From positions 62,001 through 126,000 of the forward strand of contig NZ_BMWZ01000003.1 in NCBI RefSeq assembly GCF_014651495.1: a stretch of 64,000 bases of DNA, given 5' to 3'. Position 1 is the stretch's first letter. Each line of letters starts with the position of its first letter. The notes below the pieces were generated by a model. It did no database searches and had not been told where the DNA came from. It saw nothing but the letters and a program-made list of their open reading frames with translations. Position numbers and translations under genes: made by a program. The DNA comes from Algibacter mikhailovii (lineage in GTDB: Bacteria; Bacteroidota; Bacteroidia; Flavobacteriales; Flavobacteriaceae). This document shows positions 47,245-49,638 of the stretch, one piece after another.

Positions 47245-47805
47245 ATGGCATTAGCAACTAAAGAACTTTTACAAGACCTGTTAGAAATCACTCGTGCAAA
47301 CTTAAATAGCGCCGAGCAATTAAAACAACAACCTATTACGATTCTAAACGAGAGACAAAATCCTGAAAGCTGGAGTGTATTAGAATGTATTGAGCACCTT
47401 AATCGGTATGGCGATTTTTATCTTCCTGAAATAACAGAAAAAATAACAAACACGTATTACAAGCAGAGTACAACTATCTTTAAAAGTAATTGGTTAGGTA
47501 AATATTTTAGCAAGTCAGTAGCTTACAAAAAGAATTTATACAAAATGAAAACGTTTAAATCAATGAATCCAATAAATTCAAATCTCGACATTGCTACCAT
47601 TGATAAATTTATAGAACAACAGCATCGGGTAATTGCACTTTTAAATAAATCAAAACATGTAAATCTTGACAAAACCAAAACTGCTATTTCTATTTCAAAA
47701 TTAATAACCTTAAAATTAGGGGACACTTTTAGAGTACTCATTTTTCATAATGAAAGACATGTAAAACAGGCCCTAAATACATTAAATGCGGTGAGAACGA
47801 AATAA
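47245..47805 (+). CDS. DinB-like four-helix metal-binding protein
   Basis: The 186-residue protein has the DinB/YfiT pattern: NPESWSVLECIEHLNRYGDF (first metal His), and FRVLIFHNERHVKQALNTLN near the end with further His residues. The family includes metal-dependent thiol S-transferases such as bacillithiol transferases, as well as proteins of unknown role. No signal peptide. It follows a Crp-like regulator by 56 bases on the same strand, so they may be co-transcribed. Confidence 0.82.
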   Translation: MALATKELLQDLLEITRANLNSAEQLKQQPITILNERQNPESWSVLECIEHLNRYGDFYLPEITEKITNTYYKQSTTIFKSNWLGKYFSKSVAYKKNLYKMKTFKSMNPINSNLDIATIDKFIEQQHRVIALLNKSKHVNLDKTKTAISISKLITLKLGDTFRVLIFHNERHVKQALNTLNAVRTK

Positions 47806-47927: not shown

Positions 47928-48920
47928 TTACAACTTTCGGTTGAATCTAAAAATCTCTCCCGATTGTTCAACGTGAAAAAAAGCACAGTTAGAATAATGT
48001 ACAATTTTAAATGTTGAATGATAATCGAAACCGTCACTTTCTAAAATAAATATGGCATCCACATCAATATTTCCATAAGGAGAAATTCGTCTATACCGAT
48101 ATTCAAACTGCTTAGACGTGGCATACAACTCATACCAAGCCCCAGAACCAATTCCTGAAAGCCATTGCGCATTATCGTCCAAACCAGCAACAGCCTTAGG
48201 CTCTAGTGATCCTGCTACAGACGGCTCATGATTTCTTAATTTATCAAAAAAACAACGAAGGTTTTCGCGGTTCTTGGAACCTGTGTATTGAGATATCATA
48301 CCATTCTCAGTGACTTCATAAACATACTGTTCTGTATCTGCTATTAACACATTCCCAATGGTACTTGGTGTAAACCATTTTGAGTTTTTGAGTTTCTTTC
48401 TAATAGAAGCATTTGTAACGGAAGCAATCAAAGTATCTGTAACAAAACGAGCACAATTACTGGCATTTTTAATAAAAGCCGCATAACGAACAAAATGCAT
48501 GTTTTGCATTTCTGTTATATATGACCTTGCCAGATTATAATCAACAGCATTACAAACTGAGGCCACTAATTTCCCTTCACCATGTGTTAGTTTAGGATGG
48601 GTTGCTAAAAACTCCAAAATAGAATTGATGTTTGCAATAGAATCGCCTGCCATACTAGCCTGCATGGGAAAATGCAATTCATTATCTGTATCTCTTCCTC
48701 GTACGCGCCCTGTGGATTCCGTAGTTATATAACGACCAAAATCATAGTATTCTAAAACGCCCGTTTCTTTTTCTATTAGAACCAAAGCCGCATGACCAGC
48801 CCGCAAGTAATTCTTTTTGCCAATGCCTATATATTTTAAATAAGGCGAAAACCATTCTTTAGATACCATAACAACGGTATCTGGATAGGCCAATGTTAAA
48901 ATTATTCCAGTATTATTCAT
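47928..48920 (-). CDS. Predicted permuted papain-like thiol hydrolase (possibly DUF6695)
   Basis: The 330-residue protein has no signal peptide. Two blocks stand out: YLRAGHAALVLIEKETGVLE with His43, and KNASNCARFVTDTLI with Cys156. A His-bearing G-H-A-x-L-V strand before an N-C-x-x-F helix is the arrangement of circularly permuted papain-like proteins (LRAT/YiiX/DUF4105 type), which cut or transfer acyl or amide bonds. This catalytic reading is inference. The name DUF6695 is from memory. The gene starts inside the last 8 bases of the NRDE gene, so the pair is translationally coupled. Confidence 0.6.
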   Translation of the reverse strand: MNNTGIILTLAYPDTVVMVSKEWFSPYLKYIGIGKKNYLRAGHAALVLIEKETGVLEYYDFGRYITTESTGRVRGRDTDNELHFPMQASMAGDSIANINSILEFLATHPKLTHGEGKLVASVCNAVDYNLARSYITEMQNMHFVRYAAFIKNASNCARFVTDTLIASVTNASIRKKLKNSKWFTPSTIGNVLIADTEQYVYEVTENGMISQYTGSKNRENLRCFFDKLRNHEPSVAGSLEPKAVAGLDDNAQWLSGIGSGAWYELYATSKQFEYRYRRISPYGNIDVDAIFILESDGFDYHSTFKIVHYSNCAFFHVEQSGEIFRFNRKL

Positions 48921-49638
48921 TTACAACTTCCGGTACATTGAAGACTTTTGTTGTAACTATATGACTATCCAAATGCTCATAACGCATCTTTAAGTTACCA
49001 TGATCTTTTTCGACTTGAGTAATGCTTGTTGTTTTTACAAAACCCCGATCCATAACCACACCATAATCTTCGTTTCCCCGACCTGCCGATTTATGAAAAC
49101 CTAATAAGGCTTCTGAATCCAATATACTCTCAGATTTAAAGGCTTCAAACCAAGCATTACGCTCTTGTTTCATAACTGTAGAATACAAAGTAGATGATGA
49201 CCATATTTTTGATTCCAATGGCAAATCCGTAAAAAACTTTTGCTCACCATCCCATACCAATTCATAAAATTTTAAATCCGTATTCCAATCTGAAATCACA
49301 ATGGTAAAAGGTTCTATATCATTAAAGTCATAGCTATTAACTGTATTTACAATATCATCTGAAAGCATAAAATCATTTGCCACCACCCCTCTACTCATTC
49401 TATAACTTGATTTCCTTTGATGCAAATCAAACCCTCCGTTAAGCACGCATACTACTCTATTTTTTTCGCTGATACCAATCCAAGTTCCACCTGCCAATTG
49501 ATCCTTTGGGAATAACATTTTGGTGCCATTCACCTCGTAATAATCGGGAGCAAGCGCCATTCTATCTGGAGCTTCATCGCGATTTTGAGTTATAACAAAT
49601 CCTTTATTTTCTTTTGGAATTATAGTAAGAGTACACAT
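48913..49638 (-). CDS. NRDE (TANGO2) family protein
   Basis: The 241-residue protein begins MCTLTIIPKENKGFVITQNR followed by DE, giving both family marks: Cys2 directly after Met and the N-R-D-E motif. Further family blocks are GGTWIGISEKNRVVCVLNGG and the SRG turn. The fold belongs to the Ntn-hydrolase class, where Cys at the mature N-terminus would be the nucleophile. Human TANGO2 affects lipid/acyl-CoA and haem handling; the bacterial role is unknown. It is the first gene of a two-gene transcript with the permuted papain-like gene. Confidence 0.88.
   Translation of the reverse strand: MCTLTIIPKENKGFVITQNRDEAPDRMALAPDYYEVNGTKMLFPKDQLAGGTWIGISEKNRVVCVLNGGFDLHQRKSSYRMSRGVVANDFMLSDDIVNTVNSYDFNDIEPFTIVISDWNTDLKFYELVWDGEQKFFTDLPLESKIWSSSTLYSTVMKQERNAWFEAFKSESILDSEALLGFHKSAGRGNEDYGVVMDRGFVKTTSITQVEKDHGNLKMRYEHLDSHIVTTKVFNVPEVVNE

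What the first reader, a model, noticed from the sequence alone, without database searches (positions are those of the whole stretch)
47928..49638. Coupled pair of predicted thiol hydrolases: NRDE/TANGO2 family plus a permuted papain-like protein
Seen: the two minus-strand genes overlap by 8 bases. The first has Cys2 right after Met and the N-R-D-E motif; the second has G-H-A-x-L-V (His43) well before N-C-x-x-F (Cys156). Known: NRDE proteins adopt an Ntn-hydrolase fold, and LRAT/YiiX/DUF4105-type proteins use a His-before-Cys order. Inference: the pair forms a two-enzyme unit acting in sequence on an amide or acyl substrate, possibly linked to acyl-CoA or lipid handling as proposed for TANGO2. 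I know of no described pathway made of these two genes.
Basis: partly seen in the sequence, partly recalled or inferred. Interest (0 to 1): 0.58.

Follow-up and report, generated by a model that had tools for sequence, protein, structure and literature searches.

The report
Paired cysteine enzymes of Flavobacteriaceae
Two overlapping genes encode a bacterial relative of human TANGO2 and a relative of a bacterial phospholipase-type toxin (TseH) that here looks like a housekeeping enzyme; the pairing is old and real, but each gene often lives without the other, so a shared two-step pathway is not shown.

Summary
The first is a short-subfamily NRDE/TANGO2 protein with a predicted Ntn fold. TseH and DUF6695 occur together in 10 of 10 positive genomes among 395 Bacteroidota. 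The NRDE link is old: adjacent in 11 of 11 family genomes that carry both, and in two families outside the order. It is dissociable: 4 family genomes have only TseH, 11 only NRDE, and presence is not significantly correlated (p 0.19). T6SS TssC is absent in 44 of 46 TseH-positive genomes, so this is not filed as a T6SS effector. In other lineages the gene sits in an operon with a second, dedicated PanD and a cysteine-synthase-like enzyme. Best reading: cytosolic acyl hydrolase/acyltransferase, with NRDE as an acyl-CoA-related helper. Steps after fold and active site are inference.

The parts
48913..49638 (-). NRDE/TANGO2 short-subfamily protein, 241 aa, predicted Ntn-hydrolase fold
   Evidence: ORF; PF05742 E 6.4e-14, residues 1-125 to profile 1-133 of 257; model pLDDT 92.3, TANGO2 8sv7 VIA Z 24.2
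49633..49635 (-). codon of Cys2, predicted N-terminal nucleophile
   Evidence: kept in 56 of 56 relatives
49573..49584 (-). N19-R20-D21-E22 motif
   Evidence: R20 and D21 in 30 of 30, N19 in 25 of 30, E22 in 29 of 30
48913..48920 (-). 8-base overlap of the two genes (probable translational coupling)
   Evidence: same -8 spacing in 32 of 43 paired loci
47928..48920 (-). TseH-DUF6695 protein, 330 aa
   Evidence: ORF; PF25218 E 3.8e-66 and PF20405 E 2.1e-33; single copy in own genome
48402..48902 (-). TseH-like permuted NlpC/P60 domain (residues 7-173)
   Evidence: PF25218; 6v98 Foldseek E 1.6e-7, VIA Z 16.2, 174 aligned, rmsd 3.2
48792..48794 (-). codon of His43, predicted catalytic
   Evidence: 77 of 77
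48741..48743 (-). codon of Asp60, predicted third catalytic residue (Glu in V. cholerae TseH)
   Evidence: 77 of 77; alignment with 6v98
48453..48455 (-). codon of Cys156, predicted nucleophile at the start of helix 156-167
   Evidence: 77 of 77; model
47937..48170 (-). DUF6695 domain (residues 251-328), all-beta, function unknown
   Evidence: PF20405; present with TseH in 10 of 10 phylum genomes

Best explanation
The two genes are a translationally coupled pair of cytosolic cysteine proteins. TseH-DUF6695 is a permuted NlpC/P60 (LRAT/YiiX/Lnb-type) enzyme: His43 and Asp60 activate Cys156, which takes an acyl group from a lipid or thioester as an acyl-thioenzyme and hands it to water or to an amine; the DUF6695 domain is its constant accessory (binding) domain. 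The NRDE protein is a TANGO2-type Ntn-fold protein with Cys2 free after Met removal, most likely binding or turning over an acyl-CoA or acyl-amide in the same acyl pool. It helps the first enzyme where present but is not needed for it. Shown here: families, predicted folds, conserved residues, gene overlap, old adjacency, dissociability. Inferred: activity, acyl substrate, cooperation, cytosolic location (no signal peptide seen by eye).
For: Families. Folds: 6v98 for TseH; human TANGO2, then acyl-CoA:isopenicillin N acyltransferase 2x1c Z 19.0, NAAA Z 18.2, bile salt hydrolases and acid ceramidase near Z 17 for NRDE. Triad 77 of 77, Cys2 56 of 56. Coupling: -8 overlap in 32 of 43 paired loci. 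Adjacency in 11 of 11 family genomes with both, and in G103 and G625 outside the window's order. Literature: TseH clade is permuted NlpC/P60 and V. cholerae TseH cleaves a PE analogue in liposomes at pH 8.9 (PMC12994826, passages and one section); human TANGO2 binds acyl-CoA through NRDE (PMC11867700, passages) and its crystal structure is read as a Cys Ntn hydrolase (PMC13044924, passages).
Against: Co-occurrence is not significant (p 0.19; p 0.74), so the two need not act together. Within the family the P5CDH neighbour is conserved too (39 of 43 paired loci), so adjacency there is partly plain synteny. TseH gave no activity in the mass-spectrometry assay of PMC12994826. TANGO2 acyltransferase activity was ruled out in PMC11867700. 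In the short NRDE subfamily the position that aligns with the oxyanion Asn of TANGO2 is mostly Thr (22 of 30), in a low-confidence stretch of the alignment, so it may be a binding protein, not a hydrolase.
Confidence: 0.42

Rival explanations
1. Two-step pathway: the two enzymes act one after the other on one amide or acyl substrate and need each other.
For: Tight overlap, adjacency in 11 of 11 family genomes with both and in two families outside the order.
Against: 4 family genomes keep TseH only, 11 keep NRDE only, all 4 and 7 of 11 at the same locus; TseH-only family rows nest among paired rows in the tree, so NRDE was lost while TseH stayed.
Confidence: 0.12
2. Toxin and immunity pair: TseH-DUF6695 is a secreted antibacterial effector and NRDE its immunity or chaperone protein.
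For: Pfam name and relation to V. cholerae TseH; PMC12994826 reports conflict-type contexts for the TseH clade.
Against: TssC of the Bacteroidota T6SS in 2 of 46 TseH-positive genomes, not in the window's genome; TseH without NRDE is common; stable chromosomal synteny; no phage hits, 2 plasmid records.
Confidence: 0.06
3. Peptidoglycan-recycling endopeptidase: TseH-DUF6695 cleaves muropeptides in the cytosol.
For: NlpC/P60 superfamily; TseH was first proposed to be an endopeptidase (PMC12994826 discussion passage).
Against: Permuted topology and triad as in lipid-acting clades; no muropeptide enzyme noticed among the neighbours listed.
Confidence: 0.1
4. NRDE is a heme-trafficking protein (HtpA type) and the neighbour is unrelated; adjacency is plain synteny.
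For: HtpA of Shewanella binds heme (PMC10470608, abstract and one section); P5CDH is about as conserved a neighbour as the pair itself within the family.
Against: Adjacency persists in G103 and G625 where P5CDH is absent from the stretch; heme role of TANGO2 disputed (PMC12782551 passages; PMC13044924 passages).
Confidence: 0.15

Closest known systems
TseH of Vibrio cholerae (PDB 6v98) / Pfam TseH PF25218 and DUF6695 PF20405
   Same: Fold, GH..D/E..NC active site, G-R-Y motif
   Different: Window protein has an added DUF6695 domain, Asp not Glu as third residue, and a genome without T6SS TssC
Human TANGO2 (PDB 8sv7, 9bwa) / Pfam PF05742
   Same: Cys2, NRDE, Ntn fold
   Different: Short subfamily: profile matched only over positions 1-133 of 257; G-x-S-N ... 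W-P-K motif replaced by W-S-S-x-x-L-Y
HtpA (SO0126) of Shewanella oneidensis
   Same: Bacterial TANGO2 homologue (PMC10470608, abstract and one section)
   Different: Heme-trafficking role shown there; no heme evidence here
DUF4105/Lnb, LRAT and YiiX permuted NlpC/P60 enzymes
   Same: His-before-Cys permuted layout (PMC12994826)
   Different: Separate clades; no Pfam match of the window protein to them

Membership tests
NRDE/TANGO2 (PF05742) | Profile match above the curated cut-off | tested here: met
   53.1 bits against 22.6; 30 of 30 relatives in A3 match at E 0.001
NRDE/TANGO2 (PF05742) | Cys directly after Met1 and N-R-D-E motif | tested here: met
   window sequence; 56 of 56 Cys2, 50 of 56 exact NRDE
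NRDE/TANGO2 (PF05742) | Ntn alpha-beta-beta-alpha fold | tested here: met
   predicted model, 8sv7 Z 24.2, 229 aligned, rmsd 3.0
Catalytic Cys Ntn hydrolase | Oxyanion Asn (human TANGO2 Asn157) | tested here: inconclusive
   aligned position is Thr150 in the window, Thr in 22 of 30, but alignment confidence there is low
Catalytic Cys Ntn hydrolase | Amide or acyl hydrolase activity | not testable with these tools
   needs enzyme assay
TseH clade of permuted NlpC/P60 (PF25218) | Profile match and His-before-Cys order with acidic third residue | tested here: met
   222.5 bits against 27; triad 77 of 77
TseH clade of permuted NlpC/P60 (PF25218) | Fold of 6v98 | tested here: met
   Foldseek E 1.6e-7; VIA Z 16.2, 174 aligned, rmsd 3.2
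T6SS effector | T6SS in the same genome | tested here: not met
   no TssC (PF17541) in the window's genome; 2 of 46 TseH-positive genomes given, of 69 found
T6SS effector | Cognate immunity gene | tested here: inconclusive
   NRDE neighbour is missing in many TseH-positive genomes; no assay
HtpA-type heme trafficking | Heme binding | not testable with these tools
   needs binding assay

The most novel reading that the evidence does not exclude
TseH-DUF6695 is the core of an undescribed Bacteroidota acyl-amine or CoA-type thiol metabolism. Lineage by lineage it recruits an enzyme that supplies amine or thiol parts (a dedicated second PanD for beta-alanine, a cysteine/cysteate-synthase-like enzyme, a PLP decarboxylase with a glutaredoxin) or an acyl-CoA-binding NRDE protein; it would form or cleave an amide or thioester built from these. 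TANGO2-type proteins would then have a bacterial partner enzyme that points to their substrate.
Probability: 0.12. Interest if true: 0.75.

Novelty: new variant of a known kind. Interest (0 to 1): 0.42.

Why it matters
The substrate of TANGO2, a human disease protein, is disputed (acyl-CoA, amide or heme). An old bacterial operon that couples a TANGO2 relative to an enzyme of a lipid-acting family gives a simple genetic system to test it. It also shows that the TseH-like proteins seen here in Bacteroidota look like housekeeping enzymes, not toxins, so the Pfam name can mislead annotation, and it exposes a recurring PanD-paralogue operon that none of the papers I searched was seen to describe.

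Tried and rejected
Rejected: T6SS effector reading; anti-phage defence (PADLOC, no match); mobile or phage gene (no phage record, 2 plasmid records). NCBIfam gave no family above cut-off for either window protein. DUF6695 alone found no PDB sequence match; in the structure comparison its residues gave at most Z 4.0 to beta proteins, which says little, and it was not modelled alone. PLP decarboxylase as a PanD substitute: G046 and G058 have it next to TseH and no PanD match, but four family genomes (G006, G024, G029, G281) have both, and other genomes lack PanD without having TseH, so it is only suggestive. PanD2 active-site motifs look intact (residue roles recalled); two of the twelve TseH-linked copies (L118, L125) were missed by that script's pattern. 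The heme reading is kept as a rival.

Paper searches used: TANGO2+NRDE, TseH+type VI secretion, DUF6695, TANGO2+Ntn hydrolase, TANGO2+N-terminal nucleophile, TANGO2+pantothenic acid+coenzyme A, cysteate synthase+sulfonolipid+Bacteroid, TseH+permuted+NlpC, NRDE family protein, TANGO2+Bacteroidota+operon. No listed title or abstract start described the pair; PMC12994826, the one paper holding DUF6695, holds no NRDE or TANGO2. No search was made on the PanD operon as such.

Full report
1. What is there. Window 48913-49638(-) encodes 241 aa and 47928-48920(-) 330 aa; they share 8 bases. The first matches Pfam TANGO2 (E 6e-14, only over profile positions 1-133 of 257). The second matches Pfam TseH (E 4e-66, residues 7-173) and DUF6695 (E 2e-33, residues 251-328). 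The genome has one TseH gene and one TANGO2-family gene.

2. Folds and residues. Models have mean pLDDT 92.0 (TseH-DUF6695, alignment of 33) and 92.3 (NRDE, alignment of 30). The TseH part matches V. cholerae TseH 6v98 (Foldseek E 1.6e-7; VIA Z 16.2, rmsd 3.2, 174 aligned). NRDE matches human TANGO2 (E 4e-12; Z 24.2, rmsd 3.0, 229 aligned) and then Cys Ntn enzymes: acyl-CoA:isopenicillin N acyltransferase Z 19.0, NAAA 18.2, bile salt hydrolases and acid ceramidase about 17. His43, Asp60 and Cys156, with Arg63, Tyr64, Arg72, Arg74, Asp79 and Asn97, are kept in 77 of 77 TseH domains (distinct sequences of at least 180 aa from my loci, L066 left out) and Cys2 in 56 of 56 NRDE hits. V. cholerae TseH has Glu at the Asp60 position. 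In the model Cys156 starts helix 156-167, His43 starts strand 43-50 and Asp60 lies in strand 56-62, the layout expected for the permuted NlpC/P60 group (layout recalled; grouping from PMC12994826).

3. A difference in NRDE. A profile alignment with ten long-type Bacteroidota TANGO2 proteins (prob 98.4) puts Thr150 of the window opposite the invariant Asn of the long type; the corresponding human Asn157 is called catalytic in PMC13044924 (the match of the long-type Asn to Asn157 is by motif, recalled). The short type has Thr there in 22 of 30. The alignment is weak in that stretch, so loss of the oxyanion residue is possible, not shown.

4. Gene pair. In 60 related genomes (window's included), 18 have TseH and 29 NRDE. 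Of the 37 in the window's family: both 11, TseH only 4 (G006, G010, G024, G029), NRDE only 11, neither 11; Fisher p 0.19. Where both occur they are neighbours in 11 of 11. Outside the family G039 has both, about 187 kb apart. Over 43 paired loci (at least two, L041 and L070, look like the same genomes as L024 and L026) the spacing is -8 in 32. The family locus is P5CDH divergent from NRDE-TseH, then ApaG convergent: P5CDH is two genes from TseH in 39 of 43 paired loci. TseH-only loci (L029, L031, L033, L035, L069, L108) sit next to P5CDH at the same place, as do NRDE-only genes in 7 of 11 genomes. So the pair is probably ancestral to the family and each member has been lost repeatedly. In the phylum sample TANGO2 family proteins are in 132 of 395 genomes, and in 4 of the 10 TseH-DUF6695 genomes (adjacent in 3), no enrichment (p 0.74).

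5. Age of the link. G103 (f21) and G625 (f74), both outside the window's order, have NRDE, TseH and DUF6695 in a row, with NRDE and TseH overlapping and TseH and DUF6695 as separate genes; both are preceded by YceI and DinB-like genes, without P5CDH in the stretch. In the tree of 77 TseH domains these two lie in another starred clade than the family's, so the link is ancestral with losses or arose at least twice; NRDE needs 7 changes against a shuffled mean of 26.1 (several long branches, bootstrap not settled).

6. The constant unit is TseH plus DUF6695. Among 395 Bacteroidota genomes, 10 have DUF6695 and the same 10 have TseH above the cut-off; an eleventh weak TseH hit (G412, E 4e-4, below cut-off) has none. 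All 33 full-length proteins aligned match both domains (33 chosen of 86 hits). They are fused in most loci and separate neighbouring genes in L038, L039, L040, L111 and L120.

7. Other partners. In f17 genomes, in G278 (f57) and in G697 (f19) the gene is followed by a PanD. PanD was sought in 46 of 69 TseH-positive genomes (18, 28). Fourteen have two PanD genes; the second, lower-scoring copy (about 137-150 bits against 165-184) is next to TseH in 12 of 14, not in G122 and G214. In L130 and L118 my gene caller missed that PanD, which one search places there. Upstream there is a PALP-fold enzyme, nearest to cysteate or cysteine synthases but below their cut-offs where scanned, in 8 loci (L110, L116, L118, L128, L130, L131, L132, L136; L110, L116 and L118 scanned). 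A PLP group-II decarboxylase lies within two genes in L029, L031, L033, L038, L040 and L108 (L108 and L040 scanned), with a glutaredoxin in L038 and L040. In f19 the preceding gene resembles a polyprenyl synthase (L112 scanned). These recur in few families, so they are hints only.

8. Not a T6SS effector here. TssC (PF17541) is in 2 of 46 TseH-positive genomes given of 69 found, and not in the window's genome. PMC12994826 says the TseH clade has conflict contexts (section read); my Bacteroidota set does not show that.

9. How it most likely works. TseH-DUF6695 takes an acyl group on Cys156 and hands it to water or an amine. Basis: its clade's lipid activity, including TseH on a PE analogue at pH 8.9 though not in the mass-spectrometry assay. 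NRDE binds or turns over an acyl-CoA-like partner. Basis: TANGO2 binds acyl-CoA through NRDE, acyltransferase activity ruled out, and the Ntn reading. The heme role (PMC10470608, abstract and one section) is disputed. None of this was tested on the window proteins.

10. Verdict. Observation confirmed; folds and residues supported by prediction; conserved but dissociable adjacency; the sequential pathway is unsupported. New variant of known families, with a pairing not seen in the papers searched.

Noticed in passing
L110:6274-6642 (G061), also in L116, L118, L122-L125, L128, L130-L132, L136: A second, divergent PanD (aspartate decarboxylase) paralogue sits directly after TseH-DUF6695, in 12 of 14 genomes that have two PanD genes.
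   Followed up: partly
L110:7687-8679, L118:6202-7185 and similar: A cysteine/cysteate-synthase-like PALP enzyme, below all curated cut-offs shown, precedes TseH-DUF6695 with short gaps or overlaps.
   Followed up: partly
L066:5953-6989: The TseH-DUF6695 gene of Aestuariibaculum sediminum is interrupted into two reading frames, a pseudogene or an assembly error.
   Followed up: no
L038:7170-8749 (G058): Two tandem TseH-like genes followed by a separate DUF6695 gene and a glutaredoxin; G058 and G046 have no PanD match.
   Followed up: partly
L137:7175-7543 and L138:1974-2366: Second PanD copies of G122 and G214 lie away from TseH, beside a TerC-like membrane protein gene and a DoxX-like gene (both names recalled).
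   Followed up: no
window 47245-47805 (+): A DinB_2 superfamily gene converges on the TseH gene; DinB-like genes also precede NRDE in L111 and L120. May be coincidence.
   Followed up: partly
L040:5794-7689 and L038:5020-6915: A 631-aa PurF-like glutamine amidotransferase of distant type (L040: 126.9 bits against a cut-off of 350) next to the glutaredoxin.
   Followed up: no
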